Positions 10,896-33,197 of a stretch of 33,197 bases of DNA are shown one piece after another. The number at the start of each line of letters is the position of its first letter. Within the stretch, counting starts at the first letter, position 1. Made by a program: the position numbers and the translations under genes. Origin of the DNA: Lutibacter sp. (GTDB lineage: Bacteria > Bacteroidota > Bacteroidia > Flavobacteriales > Flavobacteriaceae); contig JAQVGD010000012.1 of the NCBI GenBank assembly GCA_028696945.1, forward strand, positions 1-33,197, given 5' to 3'. The notes beneath the pieces were generated by a model that searched no databases, was not told the DNA's origin, and was given only the letters and a program-made list of their open reading frames with translations.

Positions 10896-10952
10896 CAATA
10901 AGCAATAAAATTATTTTATAAGAACTTAAAATTACATTTTTGTAAAAATAGA

Positions 10953-10982: not shown

Positions 10983-11001
10983 AGTTAAAATAAGAAATAG
11001 T

Positions 11002-12450
11002 ATGAGTTTTGATACAGTTATTCCAACGGCAAAAAGAATAGAACGTTTACAATATGAAAACCCTTGGTGGACAACAGGCAATGTGCAACAAACCTACCGA
11101 GAAATGTCTAAACGCTTGTATTTTAATTTGTTCTATCCTTTTGTAAAAGAAACTGATATTAAGCGTGCTGTGGTGCTTATGGGCCCCAGAAGAGTTGGTA
11201 AAACAGTTATGATGTATCATACCATTCAAGAGTTAATTAAAGAAAATATTTCGCCACAAAAAATCTTTTTTATAGGTATAGACAATCCTATATATTTGCA
11301 CTTAAGTTTGGAAGATATTTTGTTGTTGGCAAAAGAAGCAGTACAAGCAGCTATCTTAGAAGATTGTTTTGTTTTTTTCGATGAAATTCAGTATTTAAAA
11401 GATTGGGAGCGCCATCTTAAAGTGTTGGTTGATAGGTATCCCAAAACAAAATTTGTAGTATCGGGTTCTGCTGCTGCTGCTTTGCGTTTACAAAGTACAG
11501 AAAGTGGTGCTGGCAGGTTTACAGATTTTATGTTACCACCGCTTACCTTTCACGAATACATTCATTTAAAGGGTTTAAATCATTTGATACAAGCTAAAAG
11601 CATCGTTTACAACGGTAAAGAAATTCCTTTTTTTACCACCCACGATAACAAAGCTTTTAACAAAGAATTTTTTCATTACCTCAATTTTGGTGGATATCCA
11701 GAAGTGGTTTTGTCCGAAAAAATACAATCGGATATGGGGCGATACATAAAAAATGATATTGTAGATAAAGTGTTGCTTAGAGATTTACCCAGTTTATATG
11801 GCATTAAAGACGTGCAAGAATTAAATAGCTTTTTTACCTATTTGGCATACAACACAGGGAATGAATTTTCATTTGAGAAATTGTCTAAAGACAGTGGTAT
11901 TCAAAAAGAAATCATAAAAAAATATTTAGAATATCTTGAAGCCGCATTTTTATTAAAGGTAATACACAAGGTTAATGATAACGCCAAAAAGTTTAAAAGA
12001 ATAACGAGCTTTAAAGTGTATTTAACCAATCCTTCTTTACGAACAGCCTTATTTTCTCCCATTGTAGAAACAGATAATGAAATGGGCAATATGGTAGAAA
12101 CTGCTATTTTTTCTCAATGGATGCATCGTGAAAATCTCGATTTAAAATATGCTCGTTGGAAAATGGGACGTGCTGAAGGTGAAGTTGATATTGTACTGCT
12201 GGATAACAAATTATTTAAACCACAATGGTGTGTGGAAATAAAATGGAGCAATCGCTATGTTGACAAACCACAAGAATTAAAAAGCCTAATCTATTTCTGT
12301 AAACAAAATAATTTTAAGGCAAGTTTGGTAACAACTATTGATGTTTTAGCTAATAAAACGATAGAGGATATAAATCTAACCTATGTTCCTGCGGCTGTTT
12401 ATGCGTATAACATTGGTGTGAATACACTAGAAATAAAAACAAATTGGTAA
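11002..12450 (+). CDS. AAA family ATPase with DUF4143-type C-terminal domain
   Basis: This 482-aa protein has a Walker A at residues 61-68 (GPRRVGKT) and a Walker B at 123-128 (VFFDEIQ, with D127/E128). The sensor stretch KFVVSGSAAAAL follows. The second half has the DUF4143 look, with a winged helix (ELNSFFTYLAYNTGNEFSFEKLSKDSGI). A PD-(D/E)XK-like end region follows (GEVDIVLLD...CVEIKWSN). These 'AAA_14/DUF4143' ATPases are abundant in Bacteroidetes. Their role is undefined, though they are often found in variable islands. Here one lies between hsdS and hsdR with its own promoter, and may be an accessory of the restriction system or an independent defence gene. The END...EIKW nuclease-like motif is an inference. 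Confidence 0.88.
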   Translation: MSFDTVIPTAKRIERLQYENPWWTTGNVQQTYREMSKRLYFNLFYPFVKETDIKRAVVLMGPRRVGKTVMMYHTIQELIKENISPQKIFFIGIDNPIYLHLSLEDILLLAKEAVQAAILEDCFVFFDEIQYLKDWERHLKVLVDRYPKTKFVVSGSAAAALRLQSTESGAGRFTDFMLPPLTFHEYIHLKGLNHLIQAKSIVYNGKEIPFFTTHDNKAFNKEFFHYLNFGGYPEVVLSEKIQSDMGRYIKNDIVDKVLLRDLPSLYGIKDVQELNSFFTYLAYNTGNEFSFEKLSKDSGIQKEIIKKYLEYLEAAFLLKVIHKVNDNAKKFKRITSFKVYLTNPSLRTALFSPIVETDNEMGNMVETAIFSQWMHRENLDLKYARWKMGRAEGEVDIVLLDNKLFKPQWCVEIKWSNRYVDKPQELKSLIYFCKQNNFKASLVTTIDVLANKTIEDINLTYVPAAVYAYNIGVNTLEIKTNW

Positions 12451-12453
12451 AAA

Positions 12454-12645
12454 ATGCTCAATGAAAACTCCATAGAACTTGCTTTTGCAAACCAATTGGT
12501 TGGCCAAAAGTACTTGTATCAGTATGGTCAGATATTGCCCGATACAATCGCAATCCACACCGAGAATGTTTTTAAGAGTTTTTATGAAACTAAATATAAA
12601 ATTGTTGATGTTATAGAAAATGGACCTAATGATTTGCCATTTTAA
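12454..12645 (+). pseudogene. Truncated duplicate of the hsdR 5' end
   Basis: The first 17 residues (LNENSIELAFANQLVGQ) copy the HsdR N-terminus. At DNA level, 51 nt (12457-12507) match 14925-14975 with only three substitutions. After that the reading frame continues into an unrelated tail (ENVFKSFYETKYKIVDVIENGPNDLPF) that I do not recognise, and stops at 63 aa. The ATG lies 3 bp after the ATPase stop. It is either a decayed leftover from insertion of the DUF262 gene in front of hsdR, or a tiny translated leader. I regard it as a remnant, not a functional protein. Confidence 0.7.
12457..12507 (+). repeat. 51-bp direct repeat, copy 1 (hsdR 5' end)
   Basis: CTCAATGAAAACTCCATAGA... shares 48 of 51 bases with 14925-14975. 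The two copies flank the DUF262 gene in the same orientation and in frame. Confidence 0.9.
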
Positions 12646-12650
12646 AAAAA

Positions 12651-14903
12651 ATGAATTTTATGAAAAACGTACAAAAACCAGAAAAAATACATCTTGGAAA
12701 ACTTATAGAAGAAATAAAAAAAGGAAGGTTTGTAATACCAGATTTTCAGCGTGAATTTGATTGGCAGCCTTGGGATGTAAGAGATTTAGTGAAATCCATT
12801 TTTATGGATTATTATATTGGCACGCTTCTATTATGGGAGGGAAATAAAGAAAATTACAGAAAACTTGGTTGTGCGAACTTATATGCATTTAATGAAACTT
12901 CAGACCCAGAATTTATAGTTTTAGATGGTCAGCAAAGATTATCAGCACTTCACTATGCTTTTTTTCAACCAGATATAAAGTTTAGAAATAGGAAAAACCC
13001 CATTTATTTTTTCATCAGGCTTAAGGAATTGCTAGACGAAAACTATGAAGAAGCTTTTTTTTATTATAGTAGAACCAAATATTATGATGACTTGGTAGCC
13101 GATGTTAATATACAATATGAAAATCATATTTTTCCTCTAGGAATTATGCAGCAGGGGTCTTGGGGTATTGATGATTGGATTAAAGGCTATAGAGACTACT
13201 GGAATGAGCAAGCTGAATTAGAAGTTGACAATGAAAAGAAAACAGAATTAGAAGCACTTTCTGCTGCTGCAATTGAAATAAGACACGTATTTTCAGACCT
13301 CTTAAATAACTACCAGGTTAGTTATATATCACTCGCTAAAGAGTTGCCACTTAATAAAGTATGCGACATTTTTACACATATCAACTCTAAAGGTAAGCCA
13401 TTAGATACGTTTGATTTAATAAATTCCATTACTCGAAAAGAAGATGTTTACCTTAAAGAAATGTATAGGGAGGCATCAAAATTAATTGATGATATTAGCT
13501 ATCCAGGCTTTGAAATGAAAACTCATATTTTGATGGTGATGTCCATCATAAAACAAAATTATTGTAGTGCCAAGTATTTATATTATTTAGTTCCTGGAGA
13601 AAAGAAAAAAATAAAAAATAAAGAAGGGCAAAACGAAGAAATTATTTTAATAAATAATAAAGAAGAGTTTATAGATTTATGGAATTTGGCAGTTGGAGCT
13701 ATTGATAAAACTTTAAATAGTTTAAAAAATCAACGAGAATTTGGAGCAATCACAGCTAAGTTTTTACCCTATCCTTCAATTATTCCTTGTTTATCAGCCA
13801 TAAAATATTATGTAAAGACCTCTGAATTAAAAAACAAAGTTGACATCCATTCTAAAATTAAAAAATGGTATTGGGCTTCCATTTTCTTAAACAGATATTC
13901 CAGTTCTGTGGAAAGTACATCTACAAAGGATTTTATGGATTTAAAAAAGTGGTTTGATAATGATGACCTAGAGCTAGATGCAGTATCAGAATTTATAGGA
14001 GTCTACAAAAATATTGATTTACATAAAGAAAACAGAAACGGTTCTGCAATTTATAAGGCTATTTTCAACTTGTTTATTTTAAATGAAGCACGTGATTGGG
14101 AGACATTTGAATTACCTGAATATGACGATTTAGATGACCATCATATTGTTCCTAAAAGTTGGGGAAAGGAAATAGGTTTAGGTCAGGATATCAATACTAT
14201 TCTTAATAAAACACCACTTTCAGGAGATACAAACCGGAAGGTTATTAGAAATTCACTGCCAAATGTTTACATTAAAAATATGTTTACTAATAATGATGAA
14301 GAAAAGGTTTTTAAAGTATTAAAATCACATTTAATTAGTAAAAAAGCAGTCGAGATATTATTAAGAGAAGACTTTAGTGTTGTTGATTATAAGGAGTTTA
14401 TTGCAGAAAGGAAGAGTACGATTATTAATGCCATTTATAATATGGTTATTAATGAAACGGTGGAGCTTCCAGAGGATTTATTTAAAATTAATAATGATAT
14501 AGAGGCTCTTGAATTAAAATTTAGAGAGATTATAATCACTAATTTATTTTTGTATAATAGATCCAGTTTAAAGGAAAACTTATCGCCTGATATTTATGAT
14601 AAGTTAAATCAAAAAATTAATCGTGAAAGAAAGCGTAATCCAAATTTGGTTGAAATAAATATTGAAGATGTTGATTATTGGCTGCAGTTTTCAGATCTAC
14701 AGGAATTACAAAGTTTAATAACTTCAAAACTGCACTGGCATAAATTTGAAGGAATGTTTGTTAATAAAGAGCGATTAACTTCTGAATTTAATGATGTGGC
14801 TAACCTTAGAAATGCATTAAGACATTCACGAGAAGTTGATACTATTACAAGGATGAAAGGAGAAGCATCTATTTTATGGTTTAAACAACAATTATCTATT
14901 TAA
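12651..14903 (+). CDS. DUF262 / DUF1524 (GmrSD-like) protein with C-terminal HEPN-like motif
   Basis: This 750-aa protein starts with a DUF262 (ParB-like nucleotide-using) domain: IPDFQREFDW at 29-38 and the hallmark DGQQRLSAL at 92-100. A DUF1524-type HNH nuclease motif follows at 495-501 (DDHHIVP). These two domains define GmrS/GmrD-like modification-dependent restriction proteins. The last 130 or so residues go beyond the usual layout and are helical. They end in VANLRNALRHSREVD, an RN-xxx-H motif (R720, H725) in a context that looks like a HEPN RNase domain (Swt1/RiboL-type). The gene sits between hsdS/ATPase and hsdR, flanked by copies of the hsdR 5' end. It is probably a defence nuclease. 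The DUF262-HNH call is firm; the HEPN call is an inference. Confidence 0.88.
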   Translation: MNFMKNVQKPEKIHLGKLIEEIKKGRFVIPDFQREFDWQPWDVRDLVKSIFMDYYIGTLLLWEGNKENYRKLGCANLYAFNETSDPEFIVLDGQQRLSALHYAFFQPDIKFRNRKNPIYFFIRLKELLDENYEEAFFYYSRTKYYDDLVADVNIQYENHIFPLGIMQQGSWGIDDWIKGYRDYWNEQAELEVDNEKKTELEALSAAAIEIRHVFSDLLNNYQVSYISLAKELPLNKVCDIFTHINSKGKPLDTFDLINSITRKEDVYLKEMYREASKLIDDISYPGFEMKTHILMVMSIIKQNYCSAKYLYYLVPGEKKKIKNKEGQNEEIILINNKEEFIDLWNLAVGAIDKTLNSLKNQREFGAITAKFLPYPSIIPCLSAIKYYVKTSELKNKVDIHSKIKKWYWASIFLNRYSSSVESTSTKDFMDLKKWFDNDDLELDAVSEFIGVYKNIDLHKENRNGSAIYKAIFNLFILNEARDWETFELPEYDDLDDHHIVPKSWGKEIGLGQDINTILNKTPLSGDTNRKVIRNSLPNVYIKNMFTNNDEEKVFKVLKSHLISKKAVEILLREDFSVVDYKEFIAERKSTIINAIYNMVINETVELPEDLFKINNDIEALELKFREIIITNLFLYNRSSLKENLSPDIYDKLNQKINRERKRNPNLVEINIEDVDYWLQFSDLQELQSLITSKLHWHKFEGMFVNKERLTSEFNDVANLRNALRHSREVDTITRMKGEASILWFKQQLSI

Positions 14904-14915
14904 CTATTAGAATTT

Positions 14916-17900
14916 ATGCCTAATCTCAACGAAAACTCCATAGAACTTGCTTTTGTAAACCAATTGGTTGGTCAAGGATACACGTATTTTTATGGTCCTG
15001 AAATTGCACCATATAGCAGTAATTTACAACGTGAAAGTTTTGAGAGTATTATTTTAGAAAAGCAGTTTAAAGAAGCATTGGTAAAGCTAAATCCAACTTT
15101 ACCAGAAGGTGCATTAATAGAAGCGTATCAAAAAGTTATCAATTTAGGCACACAGGATGTGATGGAAAACAATGAGCGTTTCCATACAATGCTAACCAAT
15201 GGGGTTCCTGTTGAATATGCAAAAGGAGAAGGTGTAAAAGGTGTTAATGTTCAGTTAGTAGATTTTGAAAAAGCTTTTAAAAATGAGTTTTGGGTAGTCA
15301 ATCAATTGGTTACAAAAGAAAACAATATTGAAAAAAGATTAGATGTAGTAATCTATATCAATGGGTTGCCATTAGTAGTTGTAGAACTCAAAAATGCTAC
15401 AGATGAGAAGGCTACAGTTCGCAAAGCATTTACCCAAATACAAAACTATAAAAAAGCAGTTCCTAGCATATTTTACTACAATGCGCTATGTATTATTTCT
15501 GATGGTATTGATGCTAAAACTTCTAGTTTATCTGCTCCTTTCACACGTTTTTTATCTTGGAAAGCACCTAAAGAAAGTAATAATCTTTCAATAAATGTAA
15601 TAAATAAGTTACCCTTAGCTGCTGAACCAACTGTTGAGTATGACAAAACTGAATTACAAATTTTAACTGAACAGATGCTTCAAAAAGAGGTATTGTTAAA
15701 ATTAATTAGGTATTGTACTGTGTTTGAAAGTGAGGAGAAAAAAGATGAAAATACAGGCTTAATTTCAATAGTAAAAATTAAAAAAGTAGCTGCATATCAT
15801 CAATATTATGCAGTTCAAAAAGCAGTTGAACAAACATTAAGAGCCACTCATAAATCTGATGGAGATAGAAAAGTTGGTGTAGTTTGGCATACACAAGGAA
15901 GTGGAAAATCCTTATCAATGGTGTTTTTTAGTGGACAAATTATCACACATCCACTAATGAAAAATCCAACATTGGTAATTTTAACTGATAGGAATGACCT
16001 AGATGACCAATTGTTTGGCACTTTTGGAAATTGCGTTGGGTTATTAAGGCAAACGCCTGTACAAGCTGCGAATAGAGAACATTTGAAAGAACTATTAAAA
16101 GTGTCTGGTGGCGGTGTGGTTTTTACTACCATTCAAAAGTTTTCCCCGGAAGAAGGCAATGTGTATGATACCTTATCTGAAAGAATAAATATTGTGGTAG
16201 TAGCGGATGAAGCACATCGCAGTCAATATGGTTTTACAGGAAAAGTGGTTGAATTAGAGGAAGGTTCAGAAATACGTTACGGAAATGCTAAGTATTTACG
16301 TGATGCCTTACCAAATGCCTCATTTATTGGTTTCACAGGAACACCTATAGAAAAAGCAGACAAATCTACACCTGCTGTTTTTGGAGATTATATAGATGTA
16401 TATGACATTAAACAAGCAGTGGATGATGGTGCTACGGTACCAATTAGTTATGAGTCACGCTTGGTTAAGATTAAATTAAATTCTCAGGTAGGTAGTGAAA
16501 TTGACTCATTAGTAGATGCTATTAGCAATGCAAGTGAAGAGCAATTAGAAAAAGCAAAGAAGAAAACAGCTACAATAAATGCAGTTGTTGGGCATCCAGA
16601 CAGGTTAAAAGATGTTGCACTTGATATTGTAACACATTTTGAAGCACGCCAATCTATATTTGAAGGCAAAGCGATGATAGTATGTATGACACGTCAAATA
16701 TGTGTTGATTTATTTGCTCAAATTATTAAATTAAGACCTGAATGGGATGAAGCAGATAAAGATAAAGGAGTCATAAAAGTAATAATGACCAGCTCTTCTG
16801 ATGACCCAGAAGGTTTCCAACCACACCATACCACAAAGCAACAAAGAAAAGAACTTGCAATAAGAATGAAAGATCCAAATGATGGGTTAAAATTGGTAAT
16901 TGTACGTGATATGTGGCTTACAGGTTTTGATGCTCCAAGTATGAATACAATGTATGTTGACAAGAAAATGCAGGGTGCTAATTTAATGCAAGCAATAGCA
17001 AGGGTAAATCGAGTTTATAAGGATAAACCAGGAGGACTTATTGTAGATTATATTGGAATAGGGCAAGAATTACGAGGTGCAATGGCAACCTATTTACAAA
17101 GTGGAGGAGAAGGAACTGCTTTTGTAGATATTAGAGAAGCTATAGCAGGAATGCTAGAAAAGTTTGAAATAGTAGAACAACAATTTAATGGCTATGATTA
17201 TAAGGCTTATTTTAAAGTTGAAACCAATAAAAAATTACAAGTTTTATTGGGTGCTCAAAACTTTATTTTAGCAAGTGAAAATTTAAAAGACAGGTTTTTA
17301 CGTGAGGTAACAGCTTTATCAAAGTTGTTTGCTATGTCAGTACCAAGTTTGCAAGCTGACAGAATTAAAGACGATGTCGCATTTTTTCAAGCAGTAAAAG
17401 CAAGAATAAATAAGTTTATACCTTCAGGAACAAAATCTGATTATGAAGTTGAGACAGCCATAAAGCAAATTGTAGATGATGCATTAAGTAGTGATGGTGT
17501 AATTGATATTTTTGAAGCAGCAGGAATAAAAGCACCTTCAATAGGAATTTTATCAGACGAATTTTTGTTGGAAGTAAAGAATATGAAGCAAAAAAATGTA
17601 GCCTTTGAACTATTAAAAAAATTGCTAGGTGATGAAGTAAGACTTCGTAAGACAAAGAATATATCACAATCAAAAAAGTTTTCTGAAATGTTAGAGCGTG
17701 TGGTAAAAAGATACCACAACAATCAAATCGATTCAGCACAGGTATTAGAAGAATTATCTACTATTGCACGAGAAATGAGGTTAGAAGACCATAGGGCAGA
17801 AGAACTTGGTTTAACTTCTGAAGAATACGCATTTTACAGTGTGTTAAACCAGAATGATTCTACTAAAATGTTGGATGACCATAAAATGAAAGAACTTATT

Positions 17901-18095
17901 CATCACATTGTAGAAATCATCAGTAAAAATGCCACTGTAGATTGGAGTAAAAGAAGTGATGTCAGAGCTAAATTAAGATTGACAGTTCGTAAAATTTTAA
18001 TACGCTATGGTTATCCACCAGATTTAGCGCGTTTAGAAGCTGATAGAGTTCTAGAGCAAAGTGAGTTATTGGCTGAAGAGTTGAGTAGGGCGTAG
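14916..18095 (+). CDS. hsdR: Type I restriction-modification system, restriction/translocase subunit R
   Basis: HsdR is the motor-nuclease of the type I complex. The 1059-aa protein has an N-terminal PD-(D/E)XK nuclease (D143 ... E157-L-K159 in LDVVIYINGLPLVVVELK). A superfamily 2 helicase follows: motif I TQGSGKS around 326-332, motif II DEAH at 431-434, motif III GFTGTPIE, and the later motif ITGFDAPSMNTMYVDK-type stretch WLTGFDAPS...QAIARVNR. The last part is the helical domain that docks on the M subunit. All catalytic motifs appear intact, so with hsdM and hsdS the system should be active. Its first codons are duplicated upstream at 12454. It converges with the minus-strand operon, with 95 bp between. 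Confidence 0.97.
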   Translation: MPNLNENSIELAFVNQLVGQGYTYFYGPEIAPYSSNLQRESFESIILEKQFKEALVKLNPTLPEGALIEAYQKVINLGTQDVMENNERFHTMLTNGVPVEYAKGEGVKGVNVQLVDFEKAFKNEFWVVNQLVTKENNIEKRLDVVIYINGLPLVVVELKNATDEKATVRKAFTQIQNYKKAVPSIFYYNALCIISDGIDAKTSSLSAPFTRFLSWKAPKESNNLSINVINKLPLAAEPTVEYDKTELQILTEQMLQKEVLLKLIRYCTVFESEEKKDENTGLISIVKIKKVAAYHQYYAVQKAVEQTLRATHKSDGDRKVGVVWHTQGSGKSLSMVFFSGQIITHPLMKNPTLVILTDRNDLDDQLFGTFGNCVGLLRQTPVQAANREHLKELLKVSGGGVVFTTIQKFSPEEGNVYDTLSERINIVVVADEAHRSQYGFTGKVVELEEGSEIRYGNAKYLRDALPNASFIGFTGTPIEKADKSTPAVFGDYIDVYDIKQAVDDGATVPISYESRLVKIKLNSQVGSEIDSLVDAISNASEEQLEKAKKKTATINAVVGHPDRLKDVALDIVTHFEARQSIFEGKAMIVCMTRQICVDLFAQIIKLRPEWDEADKDKGVIKVIMTSSSDDPEGFQPHHTTKQQRKELAIRMKDPNDGLKLVIVRDMWLTGFDAPSMNTMYVDKKMQGANLMQAIARVNRVYKDKPGGLIVDYIGIGQELRGAMATYLQSGGEGTAFVDIREAIAGMLEKFEIVEQQFNGYDYKAYFKVETNKKLQVLLGAQNFILASENLKDRFLREVTALSKLFAMSVPSLQADRIKDDVAFFQAVKARINKFIPSGTKSDYEVETAIKQIVDDALSSDGVIDIFEAAGIKAPSIGILSDEFLLEVKNMKQKNVAFELLKKLLGDEVRLRKTKNISQSKKFSEMLERVVKRYHNNQIDSAQVLEELSTIAREMRLEDHRAEELGLTSEEYAFYSVLNQNDSTKMLDDHKMKELIHHIVEIISKNATVDWSKRSDVRAKLRLTVRKILIRYGYPPDLARLEADRVLEQSELLAEELSRA
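14925..14975 (+). repeat. 51-bp direct repeat, copy 2 (hsdR 5' end)
   Basis: This is the intact copy, inside the first codons of hsdR. Homologous recombination with copy 1 would delete the DUF262 gene and restore an in-frame hsdR directly behind the ATPase. Confidence 0.9.
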
Positions 18096-20301: not shown

Positions 20302-20505
20302 GTAAATACCTATTCGTTATGTGTTTTATGATTCATTATTGTTAGTAAATACCAACGTTATAAGTTTATTTCGACATTATTGCCGGTAAATACAAACATT
20401 TTGGTTATTTTATTTTGTTTGTGCATAATTATTTTATATTTTTGTTGGGAAATACTAGCGTTGTAATTTAAAAAGATGATTAATGATGGTAAATACTAAC
20501 AATAA
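20302..20505 (+). promoter_or_regulatory. Phased direct-repeat operator array of hipBA
   Basis: Five copies of (G)TAAATAC followed by a loosely conserved AACGTT-like tail start at 20302, 20345, 20386, 20448 and 20489. Examples are GTAAATACCAACGTTAT and GGAAATACTAGCGTTGT. Steps are 43, 41, 62 and 41 bp, close to whole numbers of helical turns (4, 4, 6, 4). Copy 4 abuts the -7 element and copy 5 overlaps the first hipB codons. The natural reading is a set of binding sites for the HipB repressor, laid on one face of the DNA. Confidence 0.65.
20415..20444 (+). promoter_or_regulatory. hipBA promoter
   Basis: TTG at 20415-20417, 19 bp, then TATTTTTG at 20437-20444 is a full match to the Bacteroidetes consensus. 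It lies inside the repeat array, so repressor bound at copies 3 and 4 would flank it. Confidence 0.75.
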
Positions 20506-20830
20506 TTGGGCTGCTATGAGTAATACTGCAATTATAGCAGTAATAGGAAATTATATAAAGGAGCAGCGTTTGCTTCAAAATAAATCACAGGCTAAATTAG
20601 CTGAGGAAGCAGGTGTAAACCGTTGGACAATTGGGCAGATTGAAAACGGTGAGGCAATTACCATAATTTCACTAATACAAATACTTAGAGCCTTGGACTT
20701 GTTGCACGTTTTTGATATATTTAAAATTGAACAACAAGTAAGTCCCATTGAATTGGCTAAACTGGAAAAACGAAAAAGACAACGTGCTAGCGGTAAAGAT
20801 AATGAAGAACAACCTAGAACAGATTGGTAA
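20483..20830 (+). CDS. hipB: HipB-like antitoxin, XRE-family HTH repressor
   Basis: This 115-aa protein has a helix-turn-helix of the Cro/CI (XRE) type at about residues 22-75 (IGNYIKEQRLLQNKSQAKLAEEAGVNRWTIGQIENGEA). A Lys/Arg-rich C-terminal tail follows. It should neutralise HipA and repress its own operon. ATGs exist at 20483, 20486 and 20516. I keep the upstream one because the NNWAAMSNTAI segment looks like part of the family N-terminus and the upstream context is A-rich. A start at 20516 would leave operator copy 5 outside the gene. The stop TAA overlaps the ATG of hipA (TAATG), as in coupled toxin-antitoxin pairs. Confidence 0.88.
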   Translation: MMVNTNNNWAAMSNTAIIAVIGNYIKEQRLLQNKSQAKLAEEAGVNRWTIGQIENGEAITIISLIQILRALDLLHVFDIFKIEQQVSPIELAKLEKRKRQRASGKDNEEQPRTDW

Positions 20831-22137
20831 TGATTACAACAGCATTTGTTAAGATTTGGGGAGAAACTGTTGGAGCAGTAGCTTGGGACGAAACAACAGG
20901 AATTGCCAGTTTTGAGTTTGATCCAAAAATAGCACAATTGGGTTGGGATCTTGCACCTATCAAAATGCCTATTTCTCAAACCAATAGAATATTTTCTTTT
21001 CCCGAACTTCGTAGGGCAATAAATAGCGAATTTGACACCTTTAAAGGATTACCAGGTTTATTGGCTGATGTATTACCTGATAAGTATGGTAATCAGTTAA
21101 TAAATGTGTGGTTGGCTCAGAGCGGACGTCCCATAAATAGTATGAATCCTGTAGAACAACTATGCTTTATAGGAACAAGAGGAATAGGAGCTTTGGAATT
21201 TGAACCAACCACGTTAGAATCTAATAAGCAAGCATTTTCAATTGAGATAAATAATTTGGTAAATATTGCCCAAAAAATGCTTTCAAAAAGAGACGCTTTT
21301 GGAGCCAACCTTCGGGAAGATGAGCACAAAGCAATGATGGAAATTCTCAAAATTGGAACATCTGCGGGTGGAGCAAGACCTAAAGCTGTAATTGCCTACA
21401 ATAAAGTAACAGGAGAGGTAAGATCGGGACAAACAAACGCACCAAAAGGTTTCGAACATTGGTTAATAAAACTTGATGGTGTAAGCGATGCGCAATTTGG
21501 AGAAAGTAAAGGTTATGGAAGGGTTGAAATGGCTTATTACTTAATGGCGAAAGATTGTGGAATAAATATGATGGAATCTCAACTCTTAGAAGAAAATAAT
21601 CGGGCCCACTTTATGACCAAACGTTTTGATAGGGAAGGAAACAATACAAAGCATCATGTACAAACATTTTGTGCGATGCAGCATTTCGATTTTAATGAGG
21701 TAACAAGTTTTAGTTATGAACAGTTGTTTCAGACAATGCGAATATTAAGATTGCCCTATCCACAAGCAGAACAAATGTTTCGAAGAATGGTGTTTAATGT
21801 ATTGGCAAAAAACTGTGATGATCATACCAAAAATTTTGCATTCCAGCTTAAAAGAAATCAGAAATGGGAAATTACCCCAGCTTATGATGTCTGCCATGCC
21901 TATCAACCAAACCATCGTTGGGTAAGTCAACATGCGTTAAGTATCAATGGAAAAAGAATAAACATAACAAAGGAAGACTTACTAACTGTTGCAAAGTCAA
22001 TGAATATTAAAAAGGCAGAAAACATTATTGTCGAGATAAGCCATAAAGTAGCTTCATGGAATGACTATGCCGATGAGGTTAAAGTTCAGGAAATCCTAAG
22101 AGATGCTATAAAAAATACTTTAATTAAAATGCATTAG
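20830..22137 (+). CDS. hipA: HipA-family serine/threonine kinase toxin
   Basis: This full-length (about 435 aa) HipA kinase has an N-terminal HipA_N/couple domain at about 10-110. The nucleotide-loop region GGARPKAVI comes next. The catalytic loop CDDHTKNFAF has Asp about 330 and Asn 335, and the DFG-like metal-binding AYDV has D353. In E. coli, HipA phosphorylates glutamyl-tRNA synthetase and induces persistence; the target here is unknown. The track starts at a TTG (20824). The ATG at 20830, overlapping the hipB stop by one base, is the better start. The key catalytic residues are present, so the toxin should be active. The pair is flanked by tRNA-Asn fragments, hence mobile in origin. Confidence 0.94.
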   Translation: MITTAFVKIWGETVGAVAWDETTGIASFEFDPKIAQLGWDLAPIKMPISQTNRIFSFPELRRAINSEFDTFKGLPGLLADVLPDKYGNQLINVWLAQSGRPINSMNPVEQLCFIGTRGIGALEFEPTTLESNKQAFSIEINNLVNIAQKMLSKRDAFGANLREDEHKAMMEILKIGTSAGGARPKAVIAYNKVTGEVRSGQTNAPKGFEHWLIKLDGVSDAQFGESKGYGRVEMAYYLMAKDCGINMMESQLLEENNRAHFMTKRFDREGNNTKHHVQTFCAMQHFDFNEVTSFSYEQLFQTMRILRLPYPQAEQMFRRMVFNVLAKNCDDHTKNFAFQLKRNQKWEITPAYDVCHAYQPNHRWVSQHALSINGKRINITKEDLLTVAKSMNIKKAENIIVEISHKVASWNDYADEVKVQEILRDAIKNTLIKMH

Positions 22138-26480: not shown

Positions 26481-27536
26481 TTAATCACAATGTTTTTCAA
26501 GTTTGAATTTATTGTCTTCAAAACGCAAATCAATTTCATCATCATCTTCTATTTCATGAAGCTTCCAATCAAAGGAAAAATCGGCTAAAGTTTCAAAATT
26601 TATTTTTAATAAGATGTCGGTATCAGATGAGTCAACTTCCCAGGTTCCAAAAATTTCATTTCCATTATTAATCGCTTTTAAAACTCCTTCACTCAAAAAG
26701 AAGAAGGTATAATTTTCATATTGCTCTGTTTGCTCAACATCATTAATTTTAAGTTTATCAACTTTCCAAGAACATGTTTTTAACAATTGGGTTAATTGTT
26801 CTTGAGAACAATCGTCGCAATCATCATCATCGTAATCATTGTCGTCATCTTCATCGCACATATCTTTAACCTGTTCAATTTCATTTTCTAACATATCCAT
26901 ATTTTCAATGTTTCTTTCTGTACCATCAAAAAGGATTATTGAAATTGGAAAATTAATGACTACTATATCGTTATCATCTATATCGTCAATCAATTTATAA
27001 AACTGCTCATCATTTACAACACTCACAGTTTTAGTTAATTGATTTTCTGAATTATACATAGACAAGCTTATTGGATATACAAAATCTAAACATTCAATAT
27101 CGTCATCTATTTCGTTTTCATCTCCACAATCCTCAATTAAAGCTTCTAGTTCATCTTGCGTATTGATGGTTATTTTGGAATAATCATTTAAAATAACTAC
27201 AATTGGGAAAAATATTTCTAAGTGATCTGAATCATCATCAAATTCATCAAAAATAGCTTCTATTACTTCAAAATCATCTTCTGAATCTACGTAAATCTCT
27301 AATCCGTTTACACTTACTGTTATTGGAAGTTGAACTTGCAAACAACTCGAATTGTCGATAATATTATCTTTTGAACCATCTTTTGTAACTGTGCGTTGTA
27401 CTAAATTGGTTACATTAGCGTTCACTTTTAAAGCTTCGCCTTGGGCTGGTTCTGTAATTTGTGATATTTCATCCTGACAAGAAATAAACGCCACAAAAAA
27501 TAAACTTAGAAAAAATAAATTGTAGAAATGTTTCAT
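26481..27536 (-). CDS. Asp/Glu-rich lipoprotein with internal repeats and lipocalin-like C-terminus
   Basis: This 351-aa protein has a lipoprotein signal peptide with lipobox FISC (Cys20). Residues 60-240 contain four degenerate repeats of about 50 residues. Each starts with an [L/F/Y]-P-I-x-(V/L/I) strand (LPITVSVNG, FPIVVILND, YPISLSMYN, FPISIILFD) and ends in an acidic helix. A cluster DEDDDNDYDDDDCDDC follows at about 225-240. The C-terminal 100 residues (SWKVDKLKIND ... YENYTFFFLSEGVLKAIN ... GTWEV) look like a lipocalin-type beta-barrel domain. The fold would be surface- or periplasm-exposed and is very acidic, consistent with cation binding (inference). It diverges from the ECF sigma gene and has the same GTAGGG-N16-TGTTATA motif as fecR. 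No family name recognised. Confidence 0.85.
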   Translation of the reverse strand: MKHFYNLFFLSLFFVAFISCQDEISQITEPAQGEALKVNANVTNLVQRTVTKDGSKDNIIDNSSCLQVQLPITVSVNGLEIYVDSEDDFEVIEAIFDEFDDDSDHLEIFFPIVVILNDYSKITINTQDELEALIEDCGDENEIDDDIECLDFVYPISLSMYNSENQLTKTVSVVNDEQFYKLIDDIDDNDIVVINFPISIILFDGTERNIENMDMLENEIEQVKDMCDEDDDNDYDDDDCDDCSQEQLTQLLKTCSWKVDKLKINDVEQTEQYENYTFFFLSEGVLKAINNGNEIFGTWEVDSSDTDILLKINFETLADFSFDWKLHEIEDDDEIDLRFEDNKFKLEKHCD

Positions 27537-27652
27537 GAGTTACAAATTTAAAATTAATTGTAAATAACCAAGAGGTTTTGGGGTTTTTTGGCATTAAACT
27601 TTTTAGTTTTAATAATATGCAAACCTCTTGGAATTTTTTACACAATCATGTA

Positions 27653-27681
27653 TATAACAGTTTATTTTGAAAAAACCCTAC
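27653..27681 (-). promoter_or_regulatory. Predicted ECF promoter of the Asp-rich lipoprotein
   Basis: On the minus strand GTAGGG (27676-27681), 16 bp, TGTTATA (27653-27659). Sequence and spacing are identical to the motifs at 28265 and 31859. It lies 117 bp before the start codon, leaving a long leader. Confidence 0.7.
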
Positions 27682-27740
27682 TTATTTTTTAAAATAATTA
27701 TATTTAAACCTAAAATTAATCTGAAATTTTCATAAAATTT

Positions 27741-28256
27741 ATGAATCATAATATTGATGAAGCGTATTGTAATGAAAAAAAATTCAGTGATTTTTTTTTA
27801 AATAATTCAGCATTATTGCGCAATTATATGTACTACAAATGTGGAGATGCAGAATTGGCAAATGACATTGTTCAAGATGCTTTTTTAAAATTTTGGGATA
27901 ATTGTAAAAAAGTAATTCCGGGAAAAGCAAAATCTTTTTTATTTGCCATTGCAAATAATTTATTTTTAAATGAATATGCTAAAAGCAAGGTAGCATTAAC
28001 TTTTAAAAGTATCCCACAAAAGAAATACACCCATGAAACTCCAGAGTTTTTATTGGAAGAAAAAGAGTTTGGCGAAAAATTACAAAAAGCACTTTCAAAC
28101 TTAACTGAAACACAACGAACAACTTTTTTAATGAATAGAATTGATGGTAAGAAATACAAGGAAATTGCTGAAATTTTGGGAATTTCGGTAAAAGCGGTTG
28201 AGAAAAGAATACACAACGCTTTGTTAAGTTTGAGAAAAGAAATTGAAAATATTTAG
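27741..28256 (+). CDS. ECF-type RNA polymerase sigma-70 factor (FecI-like)
   Basis: This 171-aa protein is an extracytoplasmic function sigma factor with region 2 at about 22-85 (LLRNYMYYKCGDAELANDIVQDAFLKFW). Region 4 lies at about 112-168 (LSNLTETQRTTFLMNRIDGKKYKEIAEILGISVKAVEKRIHNAL). No region 1 or 3 is present. It is followed by its cognate FecR anti-sigma and a TonB-dependent receptor with an STN domain, the classic surface-signalling trio. Its regulon is probably defined by the GTAGGG-N16-TGTTATA sites at 27653, 28265 and 31859. The sigma gene itself lacks this motif and a recognisable housekeeping promoter, so its own control is unclear. Confidence 0.95.
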   Translation: MNHNIDEAYCNEKKFSDFFLNNSALLRNYMYYKCGDAELANDIVQDAFLKFWDNCKKVIPGKAKSFLFAIANNLFLNEYAKSKVALTFKSIPQKKYTHETPEFLLEEKEFGEKLQKALSNLTETQRTTFLMNRIDGKKYKEIAEILGISVKAVEKRIHNALLSLRKEIENI

Positions 28257-28264
28257 CAAATAAA

Positions 28265-28293
28265 GTAGGGAAAACCTGTATTTAATTGTTATA
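28265..28293 (+). promoter_or_regulatory. Predicted ECF promoter of fecR-TBDR
   Basis: GTAGGG (28265-28270), 16 bp, TGTTATA (28287-28293), located between the sigma stop codon and fecR, 24 bp before the fecR ATG. It would let the sigma factor drive its anti-sigma and receptor separately from itself. Confidence 0.75.
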
Positions 28294-28316
28294 TAACTGT
28301 TATATGAATTTTACAG

Positions 28317-29222
28317 ATGGAAAAAAACTATTTTTTAGCAAAATGGCTTAATGGCGAAATAACCGAAGAAACACTTAAGGAACATGTAAGTGAGGAAGAA
28401 ATACGCGCGTATAAAAAAATAATTTCAGCCACAAACCAACTTGAAGCACCAAGTTATAATGCGCAGGAATCTTTAGAAAAAATAAAGAAAACGCATGCTA
28501 AAACCGCCGTAAAGAAACTGAAATTTACCAAATATTTTTACAGAATTGCAGCCGTGTTTGCGGTGTTAATTACTTCGTATTATTTTATTTCAACAAAAGA
28601 CACAAGTTACACAACAAATTTAGCCGAGAAAATTACTTTTGAACTACCAGACCAGTCTGAAGTGCATTTAAATGCCGATTCAAAAATTACTTTTAATGCC
28701 AAAAATTGGAAAAAAAACAGAACCTTAAATTTAAAAGGCGAAGCTTATTTCAGGGTAAAAAAAGGGAATAAATTTACTGTAAATTCAGATTTGGGTTCCG
28801 TTCAAGTTCTAGGCACAAAATTTAATGTTATTGAAAGAGACCAATATTTTGAAGTGAATTGTTATGAAGGTTTGGTAAGTGTAACTTCTAAAATTGAGAC
28901 CGTTAAGGTTCCTGCAGGAAGTTCCTATAAAATACTCAATAAAGTTTCTCAATTTTCAAAAAATACGAGTGAAATAATGCCTGCTTGGCTTCAAAACAGC
29001 AGTTCATTTAAAAGTATGCCGTATAAATATGTTGTGAAAGAATTGGAAAGACAATATAATATTTCCATTGAATATGATGTTAAGTATGAAAATAATTTAT
29101 TTACAGGAAGTTTTATTCATTCAAATTTAGAATTGGCTTTACAGGCAATCAGCATTCCCTTAAACCTAAAATACGAAATTATCAGCGATAAAAAAGTGTA
29201 TTTAAAATTAGATGAAAATTAA
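28317..29222 (+). CDS. FecR-family anti-sigma factor with DUF4974 domain
   Basis: This 301-aa protein has a cytoplasmic N-terminal anti-sigma segment (residues 1-70). One membrane helix lies at about 73-91 (YFYRIAAVFAVLITSYYFI). The periplasmic FecR domain is at about 105-200 (ITFELPDQSEVHLNADSKITF ... GEAYFRVKKGNKFTVNSDLGSVQVLGTKFNV). A C-terminal DUF4974-type domain is at about 230-300 (YKYVVKELERQYNISIEYD...). It holds or activates the adjacent sigma factor in response to the receptor STN domain. The stop codon overlaps the receptor ATG by 11 bp, so the two are translationally coupled. Confidence 0.95.
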   Translation: MEKNYFLAKWLNGEITEETLKEHVSEEEIRAYKKIISATNQLEAPSYNAQESLEKIKKTHAKTAVKKLKFTKYFYRIAAVFAVLITSYYFISTKDTSYTTNLAEKITFELPDQSEVHLNADSKITFNAKNWKKNRTLNLKGEAYFRVKKGNKFTVNSDLGSVQVLGTKFNVIERDQYFEVNCYEGLVSVTSKIETVKVPAGSSYKILNKVSQFSKNTSEIMPAWLQNSSSFKSMPYKYVVKELERQYNISIEYDVKYENNLFTGSFIHSNLELALQAISIPLNLKYEIISDKKVYLKLDEN

Positions 29223-31767
29223 CAAACTAAAGCCTTTATTAATTTTTACTTGTCTTCTTTATTCAATTTTTAGTTTTTCACAAAATTTAACTGAGGAAAG
29301 CAAATTGCTTTCTAAAATTTTAGTTGAAATAGAAAAAGAATATGAGGTTACCTTTACCTATGCCAACAAAGTAATTGAAACCATTAAAATTACACCACCT
29401 TTAAAAAAAATAACGCTTCCAGAAATCATTGAATATTTAAAAGAAAAGACCGGCTTGGTATTTACCTTTTCAACTTCAACAAATATTTTAATAAGCAAAA
29501 AATCGGGTATTGAAATTATTTGTGGCTATTTGGTTGATTTTAATTCCAACCAATACCTTAAAGGAGCTCATATTTCTGTCTTAAAATCCAATATTCATAC
29601 CACCTCAAATAGTGTGGGCTATTTTAGCATTCCAAAAATTAGTGAAAATCAGGTAATTCAAATTAGTTATATCGGTTATCCAACCTTGTCTTTAAATTCT
29701 ACCGATTTTTTGACTAATAAATGTTTGACAATCACATTAACTGAAAAATTTGAAGAACTGAGCGAAGTTATTTTGCAAAATTATTTAACCTCGGGAATTA
29801 CCATAAAAACCGATAACTCATTTGTAATTTCCCCACAGGAATTTGGTATTTTACCAGGACTGGTTGAGCCTGATGTTTTGCATCAAATACAAGCTTTACC
29901 GGGTATAAGCAGTGTGGATGAAACTGTTTCTGACATTAACATTAGAGGAGGAACAAACGACCAAAACCTATTGCTTTGGGACGGTATAAAAATGTATCAT
30001 TCAGGGCATTTTTTTGGATTAATTTCTGCGTTTAATCCGTATCTAACAGAAAGTGTTACCGTAATTAAAAACGGCACCGATTCCCAATATAATGATGGTG
30101 TTTCTGGAACTATTTCTATTGAATCAATTGATGAAATAAAAGAGAAACCATTTGGTGGAGCCGGAATTAATTTACTGAGTGCCGATGCTTATGGACAAAT
30201 ACCAATTTCAAAAAAACTGGCAATTCAAGTATCTGGAAGACGGGCTTTTACTGATTTATGGAACTCGTTAACTTTCGAACAATATTTTAATCGTGCATTT
30301 CAAAATTCTAAAGTTTCTGCTTATTCAAATGCAGACAACGAGCAAGTTGAATCTGGTTCAAACTTTTATTTTTATGATTATAGCATTAAATTATTATATA
30401 ATATTAATGAAAAACACCAATTTAGATTTAGCTTTTTAGATGTTAAAAATGAACTTGATTATAAAGAAGCAATCGATTTAGAAAAGGAAGCTGACGAGGA
30501 ATACAAAGAAAGTAGTTTGGAACAAAAAAACAAGGGTTTTGGATTTCAATTAACCGACAATTGGAACTCAAAATTTAAAACAGTTTTTAATGCTTATTAT
30601 ACAAAATACAACCTAAATTCTTCAAATCAGGAGCTTTTTACGGAGCAGCTTTTACAACAGCGCAATGAAGTTTTGGAAACAGGCTTAAAATTAAATACGC
30701 ACTATTCAATTTCAAAGAAAATTCAACTGTTAAATGGTTATCATTATTATGAATTGGGAATTACAAATACAGAGGTTGTAAATGTTCCAGATTACAGTCG
30801 GATTATTAAAAATGTGCTGAGAAATCATTCGCTTTTTAGTGAAGTTAATTACACTTCAAGTGACAAAGAAACGTTTGTGAATGCTGGATTGCGATTGAAT
30901 TATATTGAAAATTTTAACACATTTATTATTGAACCCAGATTACAGGCATTGCATAAGCTAAATAAACATTTTTCGTTTAAAATTGCTGGTGAATTTAAAA
31001 GCCAGAATGCCACTCAAATTATAGATTTACAAGAAGATTTTTTAGGAGTTGAAAAAAGACGATGGATTTTAGCTGACAATACAACCACCCCAATCATAAA
31101 AAGCCAACAAGCTTCTGCTGGATTTAATTTCCACAAACAACATATTTTTATTGATATAGAGGGCTTTTACAAATATGTAGATGGTATTACAACTGCAAAT
31201 CAAGGATTTCAAAATCAAAATCAGTACATAAAAACTTCTGGAAGTTATACTGTAAAAGGAATTGAATTTTTAATTAATAGAAAAACCGATACTTTTAGTA
31301 CATGGTTAGGCTATACTTATAATCACAATACCTATAATTTTCCAGAGTTAACACCTAGTGAATTTCCGAATAATTTGGATATTAGACACAGCATTTCGTT
31401 TGGAAACACCTACACTTATAAGAAATTTAATTTTGCTATCGGACTTTTATGGCGAAATGGAAAACCTTATACTACACCTCAAGAGGCAAATCCAATTACT
31501 GTTGACGGCATTAATTCTTATATAAATTACAACTCCCCAAATAGCGATAATTTACCAAATTACTATAGGGTCGATTTTTCATCAACCTATAAATTTAATC
31601 TAAACAAAAAAGTTGACGCAATGGCTGGCATTTCAATTTTAAACATTTTAAACACTAAAAATATTTTAAATACTTACTACAAAATAACTCCTGAAAGTAC
31701 CATAAACACTATTAATAGTGTTGCTTTAGCCACAACTCCCAATTTCACTTTTAGAATTTCTTTTTAA
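29212..31767 (+). CDS. TonB-dependent outer-membrane receptor with STN signalling domain
   Basis: This 851-aa protein has a signal peptide (MKINKLKPLLIFTCLLYSIFSFSQ). The STN (secretin/TonB N-terminal) signalling domain at about 28-95 is the part that contacts FecR. A carboxypeptidase-regulatory-like beta-sandwich (about 100-180) is followed by the plug domain (about 205-310, with SDINIRGGTNDQNLLLWDG). The beta-barrel reaches the C-terminal phenylalanine of ...TPNFTFRISF. The length suits a Bacteroidetes receptor without a SusD partner, and no SusD gene follows. Ligand unknown. The linked acidic lipoproteins suggest a cationic or metal-related substrate, but this is speculation. Confidence 0.94.
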   Translation: MKINKLKPLLIFTCLLYSIFSFSQNLTEESKLLSKILVEIEKEYEVTFTYANKVIETIKITPPLKKITLPEIIEYLKEKTGLVFTFSTSTNILISKKSGIEIICGYLVDFNSNQYLKGAHISVLKSNIHTTSNSVGYFSIPKISENQVIQISYIGYPTLSLNSTDFLTNKCLTITLTEKFEELSEVILQNYLTSGITIKTDNSFVISPQEFGILPGLVEPDVLHQIQALPGISSVDETVSDINIRGGTNDQNLLLWDGIKMYHSGHFFGLISAFNPYLTESVTVIKNGTDSQYNDGVSGTISIESIDEIKEKPFGGAGINLLSADAYGQIPISKKLAIQVSGRRAFTDLWNSLTFEQYFNRAFQNSKVSAYSNADNEQVESGSNFYFYDYSIKLLYNINEKHQFRFSFLDVKNELDYKEAIDLEKEADEEYKESSLEQKNKGFGFQLTDNWNSKFKTVFNAYYTKYNLNSSNQELFTEQLLQQRNEVLETGLKLNTHYSISKKIQLLNGYHYYELGITNTEVVNVPDYSRIIKNVLRNHSLFSEVNYTSSDKETFVNAGLRLNYIENFNTFIIEPRLQALHKLNKHFSFKIAGEFKSQNATQIIDLQEDFLGVEKRRWILADNTTTPIIKSQQASAGFNFHKQHIFIDIEGFYKYVDGITTANQGFQNQNQYIKTSGSYTVKGIEFLINRKTDTFSTWLGYTYNHNTYNFPELTPSEFPNNLDIRHSISFGNTYTYKKFNFAIGLLWRNGKPYTTPQEANPITVDGINSYINYNSPNSDNLPNYYRVDFSSTYKFNLNKKVDAMAGISILNILNTKNILNTYYKITPESTINTINSVALATTPNFTFRISF

Positions 31768-31858
31768 AAATTAAAATTATTAATGGGCCATTATTATTTA
31801 TAAAAATAGCCTGTTGCCATACAAATTGAAATTTTTATTTAAAACTATTGATTTAATG

Positions 31859-31887
31859 GTAGGGTTTTCTCCCTGCTGTTTGTTATA
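31859..31887 (+). promoter_or_regulatory. Predicted ECF promoter of the Ig-like/Asp-tract lipoprotein
   Basis: GTAGGG (31859-31864), 16 bp, TGTTATA (31881-31887), 147 bp before the ATG at 32035. It is the third copy of the bipartite motif. The leader between motif and ATG has no other gene. Confidence 0.7.
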
Positions 31888-32034
31888 AAATAGGTATGGT
31901 AACTGCTCACACATAAATGGATTATAAACTATTAAATAGATTTTATGTTTGAAAAGATATGATGCTTATTAATAGCATCCATCTTATGAAGAGGGTTGAT
32001 CTTTTAACTAGAATTTAATTAAAAAATTAAAAAA

Positions 32035-33197
32035 ATGAAATTATTAAAAAATTTATTGACAACTTTTGCGATAGCGGCGGTTGTTTTAGTGACTAGTTGT
32101 TCAAGTGATGAAGGCATCACAACAAGTCAGTCAGATGTAAATCTTGCAGAAGCAGGTCTTAAAGAAACATTTCCTGCAAATCTTGCTGAAACCGTGGCTG
32201 TTAATCCTCTAATAGTCGTAAATTTTAAAAGTACCGCCAATCCGTCAGAAGTAGCAGCATCTGTCTTAACCTTAAAAAAAGGGACAACGCCAATTTCTGG
32301 CACAGTAACCTTTTCAGGGACTACAGCTGTTTTTAGACCAGATACTTATTTGGCAACTAATTCCCAGTTTACTGCAACAATAAAAACCAATTTAAAGGAT
32401 GGATCTTCCAATGATAACGAAAAGGAACATTCTTGGACATTTAGAACTGATGATCACCACCATGAGAAATCGTTTTCAGTTGTTTCGGTTACTCCCAAAA
32501 ATAAAGATATTGATGTAGCGTTTGACGTTCATCCCACTATTAAATTCAGCAGGGAAATGAAATCAGAAATGACAAAATTGGTAACTTTTACCTTAAAACA
32601 AGGAACAACAGTTGTTGAGGGTTCATTAACCTATTCCAATAAAACTGCTACATTTATTCCAACAAGTAATTTAAAAGCCAATACTTTATACACAGGAGCA
32701 ATTATAATAAATAACAGCAATAGTAATGAAGATGATGATGACGATGATGACAATCATTATTATGAAGATGATGATGACGACGATGATGATGATGATGATG
32801 ATGATGACGATGATGACGATGATGACGATGATGACAACGATGATGATGACGATGATCATCATTCAACGAACACCTATATATGGGGTTTTACAACACTTGC
32901 ACCTGTTGTAGGAGACACAACTGCGCCAACAGTGCTTTCTGTAGTTCCAGCAAATAATGCAACTTCAATAGCTGTCAACAGTAATGTTACCGCAACTTTC
33001 AGCGAAGCTATGGATGCATCAACCATTTCAACTGCTACTTTTACCTTAAAACAAGGAACAACAAATATAATAGGATCGGTTTCTTATTCGGGTACAACGG
33101 CTACTTTTAACCCAACCAACGACCTTGATGCTGGATTGGTTTATACGGCAACAATTACCACAGGAGCTAAAGATGTTGCTGGAAATGCAATTACCAC
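32035..33197 (+). CDS. Lipoprotein with SbsA-type Ig-like domains and poly-Asp insertion (3' end beyond the window)
   Basis: This frame is open from ATG 32035 to the window end (at least 387 codons) and is absent from the ORF track, presumably because it has no stop here. It starts with a lipoprotein signal peptide (VLVTSC, Cys22). At least three Big_5/SbsA-like Ig domains follow; the third opens with VVPANNATSIAVNSNVTATFSEAMD and contains TLKQGTT. Inside the second, residues 233-276 are an insertion of 7 Asp, NHYYE, 23 Asp, N, 6 Asp, HH, encoded by (GAT/GAC)n. The rest is Thr/Ser-rich, typical of surface-exposed adhesin-like lipoproteins. The poly-Asp could bind divalent cations and its codon tract is slippage-prone. 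It carries the same promoter motif as fecR. Confidence 0.88.
   Translation, partial: MKLLKNLLTTFAIAAVVLVTSCSSDEGITTSQSDVNLAEAGLKETFPANLAETVAVNPLIVVNFKSTANPSEVAASVLTLKKGTTPISGTVTFSGTTAVFRPDTYLATNSQFTATIKTNLKDGSSNDNEKEHSWTFRTDDHHHEKSFSVVSVTPKNKDIDVAFDVHPTIKFSREMKSEMTKLVTFTLKQGTTVVEGSLTYSNKTATFIPTSNLKANTLYTGAIIINNSNSNEDDDDDDDNHYYEDDDDDDDDDDDDDDDDDDDDDDDNDDDDDDHHSTNTYIWGFTTLAPVVGDTTAPTVLSVVPANNATSIAVNSNVTATFSEAMDASTISTATFTLKQGTTNIIGSVSYSGTTATFNPTNDLDAGLVYTATITTGAKDVAGNAIT
32731..32862 (+). repeat. (GAT/GAC)n trinucleotide tract coding for poly-Asp
   Basis: A run of GAT and GAC codons (132 nt, interrupted by AAT CAT TAT TAT GAA and AAC) encodes 36 Asp. The track ORF 32726-32911 is its frame-shifted shadow. 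In-frame slippage would change length in whole residues. Confidence 0.92.

What the first reader, a model, noticed from the sequence alone, without database searches (positions are those of the whole stretch)
27653..31887. Three identical bipartite motifs define an ECF sigma regulon that joins fecR-TBDR with two Asp-rich lipoproteins
GTAGGG-N16-TGTTATA occurs with the same sequence and exact 16-bp spacing at 27653-27681 (minus), 28265-28293 and 31859-31887 (plus). The sites lie upstream of the acidic repeat lipoprotein, fecR and the Ig-like lipoprotein. A 13-base conserved pair of boxes with fixed spacing three times in about 4 kb is far beyond chance. Given the ECF sigma gene in the middle, it is best read as its -35/-10 promoter. 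This would make the two lipoproteins part of one receptor-controlled surface system.
Basis: partly seen in the sequence, partly recalled or inferred. Interest (0 to 1): 0.8.

Follow-up and report, generated by a model that had tools for sequence, protein, structure and literature searches.

The report
Shared promoter of a surface-sensing regulon
Three identical two-part DNA signals in this flavobacterium are very probably on-switches read by one envelope-sensing sigma factor; the same switch is found across a whole bacterial family, where it also drives many other surface lipoproteins, tiny membrane proteins and a previously unlisted small RNA.

Summary
GTAGGG-N16-TGTTATA occurs three times in the window (0 expected in shuffles) and nowhere else exactly in the 3.36 Mb assembly. 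In 80 related ECF loci of Flavobacteriaceae, GTAGGG is the commonest 6-mer behind the ECF gene (74/80) and on the divergent strand (68/80), and spacing is 16 bp at all 73 fecR sites scored. In six genomes with 30 examined FecR loci, only those whose ECF is at least 50% identical to this one carry the motif (7/7 versus 0/23). A strict motif is present in 88/158 genomes with such an ECF and 1/41 without.

The regulon is wider than the window. Of 106 strict sites, one lies inside a gene; the rest precede fecR, the divergent lipoprotein family, other lipoproteins, a conserved 55-aa membrane protein, ~27-aa membrane peptides and a ~120-nt terminator-ended putative sRNA. That sRNA is absent from Rfam and single-copy in 36/199 genomes; 29/30 copies examined have the motif upstream. 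The core works like FecI-FecR-FecA signalling; ligand, transcription starts and sRNA targets are unknown.

The parts
26481..27536 (-). 351-aa acidic lipoprotein (lipobox Cys20): four FP/YP beta-beta-alpha-type repeats plus C-terminal lipocalin-like domain; no Pfam or NCBIfam family
   Evidence: AF2 pLDDT 83; 4qrl Z 10.4 over residues 250-349
27653..27681 (-). promoter-like site GTAGGG-N16-TGTTATA reading into the divergent lipoprotein
27741..28256 (+). ECF sigma factor (Sigma70_r2, Sigma70_r4_2)
28265..28293 (+). promoter-like site GTAGGG-N16-TGTTATA reading into fecR and the receptor gene
28317..29222 (+). FecR-type anti-sigma factor (FecR, FecR_C)
29212..31767 (+). TonB-dependent receptor with N-terminal signalling-type domain, carboxypeptidase-like domain, plug and beta-barrel
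   Evidence: best match full-length FpvA, signalling domain included
31859..31887 (+). promoter-like site GTAGGG-N16-TGTTATA reading into the Big_5 lipoprotein
31888..32034 (+). 147-nt leader of the Big_5 gene; its first ~50 nt resemble the leader of motif-driven DUF4382 lipoprotein genes in relatives
32035..33197 (+). Big_5 (Ig-like) lipoprotein with poly-Asp run, lipobox Cys22, truncated by the contig end

Best explanation
GTAGGG-N16-TGTTnTA is the -35/-10 promoter of a clade of FecI-like ECF sigma factors in Flavobacteriaceae. The most likely working: the outer-membrane receptor binds an unknown ligand and signals through its N-terminal domain to FecR in the inner membrane; FecR releases the ECF; the ECF transcribes fecR plus the receptor (feedback), the divergent acidic lipoprotein and the Big_5 lipoprotein. 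In many relatives the same sigma factor also drives a small RNA, small membrane proteins and further exported proteins. Shown computationally: motif, spacing, orientation, conservation, link to the ECF clade, regulon content. Inferred: that it is a promoter, the signalling steps, and surface location of the lipoproteins. Unknown: ligand and sRNA targets.
For: Unbiased counts: GTAGGG is the top 6-mer after the ECF stop (74/80 loci) and on the divergent strand (68/80; own strand 10/80); TGTT follows at offset 16 in 65/74. All 73 scored fecR sites have 16-bp spacing, and 71 of them end 5-25 nt before the start codon. fecR sites contain a housekeeping TAnnTTTG box in 1/73, while that box is enriched upstream of the ECF gene (22/80; 6.5 expected in shuffles). 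FecR loci in six genomes: motif in 7/7 with ECF at least 50% identical, 0/1 at 46%, 0/22 for more distant or undetected ECFs. Strict motif in 88/158 ECF-positive and 1/41 ECF-negative genomes, Fisher p 4e-11. -10 heptamers agree within loci more than between (p 0.0006 by shuffling); TGTC occurs at both promoters in five loci. The sRNA model was built without the motif, yet 19/20 examined copies in genomes outside its training set have the motif upstream; the conserved RNA 5' end lies 7-10 nt behind it in 21 of 30 copies. Receptor fold matches full-length FpvA including the signalling domain.
Against: No transcription data. Some genomes carry several ECFs of this clade, so which one reads which site is not resolved. 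The co-variation shuffle test ignores relatedness of the loci. The published F. psychrophilum promoter map reports one ECF-type motif (CGT box, T9SS genes) and not this one (PMC9723704), though its authors say other ECF promoters may have been missed.
Confidence: 0.88

Rival explanations
1. The two boxes are the operator of an ordinary transcription factor (not a sigma factor) encoded elsewhere, which happens to control this locus.
For: The boxes are bipartite and ECF-motif assignments are by association only; no promoter assay exists.
Against: Non-palindromic, directed toward the gene, 16-bp spacing, ends 5-25 nt before fecR starts, replaces the housekeeping -7 box, sits just before the sRNA 5' end, and follows the ECF clade rather than FecR loci in general.
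Confidence: 0.06
2. The divergent lipoprotein and fecR belong to this ECF, but the Big_5 lipoprotein (third site) is read by a paralogous ECF or has its own extra regulator.
For: Big_5 and DUF4382 genes with the motif lie away from the ECF locus in relatives and share an extra conserved leader block; their leaders are about 145-200 nt long; genome G007 has motif sites but no recognised divergent-lipoprotein homologue.
Against: Identical 13 box bases; in this genome only one other FecR locus exists and it lacks the motif; the site is conserved beside the ECF locus in a sister species (L052/G002).
Confidence: 0.15
3. Chance recurrence or recent copying of a repeat unit.
For: None found.
Against: Spacers differ between the three sites; zero in shuffles; motif conserved over 84 of 185 genera sampled.
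Confidence: 0.01

Closest known systems
FecI-FecR-FecA cell-surface signalling of Escherichia coli (and FpvA/FoxA-type systems of Pseudomonas)
   Same: ECF sigma, FecR anti-sigma, TonB-dependent receptor with N-terminal signalling domain, receptor gene under ECF control (review PMC9249621, seen as a search hit only)
   Different: fecR itself appears to be under the ECF promoter together with the receptor; a divergent lipoprotein of an unnamed family is a frequent partner; regulon spreads over many lipoproteins and, in relatives, an sRNA; ligand unknown
ECF/FecR-controlled SusC/SusD glycan systems of Bacteroidota (own knowledge)
   Same: ECF, FecR and TonB-dependent receptor in one locus next to surface-type lipoproteins
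   Different: No SusD gene; the lipoprotein has a different architecture (repeats plus lipocalin-like domain); the own-genome FecR locus next to a long receptor (C199) lacks the motif
SigmaE-dependent sRNAs (MicA, RybB in Enterobacteria, own knowledge; FoxJ in Fusobacterium, PMC11005410)
   Same: An ECF-type promoter directly in front of a short terminator-ended RNA
   Different: Other phylum, other kind of ECF (FecR-linked); no Rfam match; targets unknown; expression not shown
SM6 promoters of Flavobacterium psychrophilum (PMC9723704)
   Same: ECF-type promoters in Flavobacteriaceae
   Different: SM6 has a CGT -10 box and drives T9SS genes; no GTAGGG motif is mentioned in the text

Membership tests
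FecI-FecR-FecA cell-surface signalling | ECF sigma factor with regions 2 and 4 | tested here: met
   Sigma70_r2 E 7.5e-11, Sigma70_r4_2 E 2.3e-17
FecI-FecR-FecA cell-surface signalling | Adjacent FecR-family anti-sigma factor | tested here: met
   FecR E 5.9e-19, FecR_C E 8.8e-12, above curated cut-offs
FecI-FecR-FecA cell-surface signalling | TonB-dependent receptor with an N-terminal signalling domain | tested here: met
   Plug domain; model residues ~31-96 form a small alpha/beta domain; best fold match is full-length FpvA with signalling domain, alignment long enough to span it
FecI-FecR-FecA cell-surface signalling | Receptor gene expressed from an ECF promoter | tested here: inconclusive
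   Strong comparative evidence for a promoter in front of fecR-receptor; no expression data
FecI-FecR-FecA cell-surface signalling | Ligand-induced release of the sigma factor (FecR proteolysis by RseP in E. coli, PMC8144685) | not testable with these tools
   needs cells
SusC/SusD-type ECF locus | SusD-family lipoprotein next to the receptor | tested here: not met
   neighbouring lipoproteins match no SusD model; one has no family, the other is Big_5
Lipocalin-like lipoproteins (divergent gene) | Lipocalin-like C-terminal barrel | tested here: met
   4qrl Z 10.4, 90 residues, rmsd 2.5, model 250-349; the N-terminal repeats were not searched alone
Bacteroidetes surface-exported lipoproteins (LES) | Acidic export signal just behind the lipidated Cys (QKDDE, SDDDD, SDDFE; PMC5080379) | tested here: inconclusive
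   C20 and Q21 invariant in 42 homologues, followed by D/E-rich residues; resembles, does not match exactly
ECF group of the published classification | Group assignment by group-specific model | not tested
   classification paper not held; best NCBIfam TIGR02985 below cut-off

The most novel reading that the evidence does not exclude
A family-wide receptor-controlled ECF regulon in Flavobacteriaceae that, beyond its receptor, commands a previously undescribed single-copy small RNA with an almost invariant 19-nt core (ATGTGTTTAGGTTGGTTTT), small membrane proteins and a battery of lipoproteins: an envelope-remodelling response wired to a TonB-dependent receptor, analogous to sigmaE with its sRNAs but built from FecI/FecR parts.
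Probability: 0.6. Interest if true: 0.8.

Novelty: new variant of a known kind. Interest (0 to 1): 0.64.

Why it matters
Bacteroidota encode many FecI-like sigma factors but few have a known promoter or regulon (own knowledge). Here a single readable motif gives promoter, sigma factor and regulon together for a large family, names a frequent lipoprotein partner of the receptor, and points to a small RNA whose function can be tested at once. It turns an annotation ('ECF sigma factor, FecR, TonB receptor') into a defined, testable regulatory circuit.

Tried and rejected
Reading other two-mismatch hits in the own genome as regulon members: rejected, fewer than in the reversed control. C196 and C86 one-mismatch sites: inside ORFs, treated as chance. 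C270 as proof of a paralogue: not used, since it is 90-96% identical to another species' contig and may be contamination. Perfect antisense of the sRNA core (13-mer) in 15 genomes: finds mainly the sRNA itself, no recurrent target. The sRNA as a micropeptide gene (MCLGWF...): possible, but 27/30 copies are identical over 19 nt including third codon positions, the T-run length changes the frame and a few copies lack the start, so RNA is favoured. sRNA in the window's own genome: none; in the genus only two weak hits. Rfam: nothing but a tRNA. PDB sequence search with the receptor: nothing. Literature: no paper found with GTAGGG as an ECF motif in Flavobacterium; most subscription papers are not held, so absence is weak evidence. 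In the catalogue my pattern for the sRNA was too strict, so most sRNA sites fell under 'none'; they were counted by hand.

Full report
Observation. GTAGGG-N16-TGTTATA lies at 27653-27681 (-), 28265-28293 (+) and 31859-31887 (+), exactly as reported. No exact copy appears in 100 dinucleotide-preserving shuffles and no other exact copy exists in the 3,359,956-base assembly. One-mismatch sites are two in ORFs (C86, C196) and a pair on contig C270 flanking a second, diverged lipoprotein/ECF locus; C270 is 90-96% identical to another species' contig, so it may be a contaminant rather than a paralogue. Two-mismatch sites are background: 41 matches in all against 105 for the reversed control.

Genes. 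The window end holds, divergently, a 351-aa lipoprotein (26481-27536, -) and ECF sigma (27741-28256), FecR (28317-29222), TonB-dependent receptor (29212-31767) and a Big_5 lipoprotein from 32035 that runs off the contig. The site at 27653 reads into the lipoprotein (about 117-nt leader), 28265 into fecR (23 nt), 31859 into Big_5 (147 nt). Both lipoproteins are acidic.

Conservation of the motif. One scan of species genomes gave 80 loci with relatives of this ECF (52-92% identical), all but a few labelled Flavobacteriaceae. Without assuming a motif, GTAGGG is the commonest 6-mer in the ~110 nt behind the ECF stop (74/80) and in the 500 nt upstream on the divergent strand (68/80), against 10/80 on the ECF's own strand; TGTT follows at offset 16 in 65 of 74. 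All 73 scored fecR sites have a 16-bp spacer, with 71 ending 5-25 nt before the start codon. The consensus is GTAGGG-T-W-W-W-N11-Y-TGTT-W-T-A; the GTAGGG part of that table is fixed by the search, so one search is the unbiased evidence. Sixty-one loci have such a site before a divergent lipoprotein-like gene, and 66 of 71 loci long enough to judge have an ORF above 650 aa behind fecR, the expected place of the receptor.

Why a sigma promoter. The motif is directional, has constant spacing, sits at promoter distance and replaces the housekeeping TAnnTTTG box (1/73 fecR sites), whereas that box is enriched in front of the ECF gene itself (22/80; 6.5 expected). Its presence follows this ECF clade. 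Across 199 Flavobacteriaceae genomes the strict form occurs in 88/158 genomes with an ECF relative at E <= 1e-30 and 1/41 without (Fisher p 4e-11); reversed-pattern controls are almost all zero. Inside six genomes, of 30 examined FecR loci, the motif is in 7/7 whose neighbouring ECF is at least 50% identical to the window's, in 0/1 at 46%, and in 0/22 of the rest. Within a locus the -10 boxes of the two promoters agree more than between loci (5.79 versus 5.49 of 7, shuffle p 0.0006), with TGTC at both promoters in five loci; this test does not correct for relatedness.

Regulon. In the genus the motif precedes fecR, the divergent lipoprotein, Big_5 lipoproteins away from the ECF locus, DUF4382 lipoproteins, DUF2490 proteins, TSP3-repeat lipoproteins (one beside another FecR) and a polytopic membrane protein. 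Over the family, 106 distinct strict sites were read: one falls inside an ORF; about 23 precede the divergent lipoprotein family and 19 fecR; the rest include 14 other lipoprotein-like genes, a cytochrome-c-like lipoprotein, a cupredoxin-like protein, nine copies of a 55-aa single-span protein ending QFGY, and about four ~27-aa membrane peptides. A Rieske protein and a tRNA_anti-like protein lie behind looser sites near the ECF locus. Some identifications are by reading the sequence only.

A small RNA. About ten sites precede no ORF but a conserved stretch of ~110-125 nt ending in a terminator hairpin. A covariance model of that stretch, without the motif, finds exactly one copy in 36 of 199 genomes (34 genera), all of them ECF-positive (hypergeometric p 1e-4). 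Of 30 copies examined, 29 have a GTAGGG-N16 box upstream, including 19 of 20 in genomes not used for the model; the conserved TTGCT lies 7-10 nt behind the motif in 21. The core ATGTGTTTAGGTTGGTTTT is identical in 27/30. It has no Rfam match, is not found in the window's genome, and its antisense reveals no recurrent target. Expression is not shown.

Proteins. The divergent lipoprotein forms a family with invariant C20-Q21 and four conserved prolines in repeats; its model (pLDDT 83) has a C-terminal lipocalin-like domain (4qrl, Z 10.4). The receptor model (pLDDT 82) is closest to full-length FpvA including its signalling domain, which fits a transducing receptor but does not tell the ligand.

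Mechanism. Best reading: FecI/FecR/FecA-like signalling in which the ECF transcribes its own anti-sigma and receptor, the partner lipoprotein and further envelope proteins, and in many relatives an sRNA. Promoter function, signalling and surface location are inferred; ligand and purpose are open. Metal- or redox-related products recur among targets (Rieske, cupredoxin-like, cytochrome-like, Asp/His-rich lipoproteins), which makes a metal-linked cue a guess worth testing, no more.

Relation to the known. The signalling parts are of a known kind. The promoter, the lipoprotein family, the breadth of the regulon and the sRNA were not found described in the papers at hand; the F. psychrophilum promoter map lists a different ECF motif. 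Hence 'new variant of a known kind'.

Noticed in passing
27537-27652 (-), leader of the divergent lipoprotein: The ~117-nt leader holds an 11-bp inverted repeat CCAAGAGGTTT...AAACCTCTTGG that folds into a long hairpin; most relatives outside the closest ones have only ~20-28 nt leaders.
   Followed up: partly
31888-32034 and L146, L150, L153 leaders: Leaders of unrelated Big_5 and DUF4382 lipoprotein genes share a block TGTATGGTA..TATTTA...AAATGGA right behind the motif, perhaps a second regulatory element.
   Followed up: partly
L293-L322: Conserved ~120-nt putative sRNA with near-invariant core ATGTGTTTAGGTTGGTTTT and terminator, one copy per genome, behind the motif.
   Followed up: yes
L238, L245, L248, L259, L276, L282, L284: 55-aa single-span protein MDVI.EI...QFGY, mostly with the motif variant GTAGGGTTTTTGGC and a 57-78 nt leader.
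   Followed up: partly
L277, L283, L291, L253: Tiny ~27-aa membrane peptides (e.g. MNTFFTVLVVLLALNLCLLLVSVNRPK) directly behind the motif, short enough to be missed by usual gene callers.
   Followed up: no
L079, L082, L083, L101, L219: A motif site lies 170-400 nt upstream of what reads as the signal-recognition-particle gene (MFDNLSDKLDKAFH...) in several genomes; a hidden short gene in between was not excluded.
   Followed up: no
G000:C270 (L021): Second copy of the lipoprotein/ECF locus in the same assembly, ECF 76% identical, contig 90-96% identical to another species: contamination or paralogue.
   Followed up: partly
window 8170-18092 and 20483-22137: Type I restriction-modification set (hsdM, hsdS, hsdR) with an ATPase and a GmrSD-type gene between, a tRNA at 7791-7864, and a hipBA-like pair behind.
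   Followed up: no
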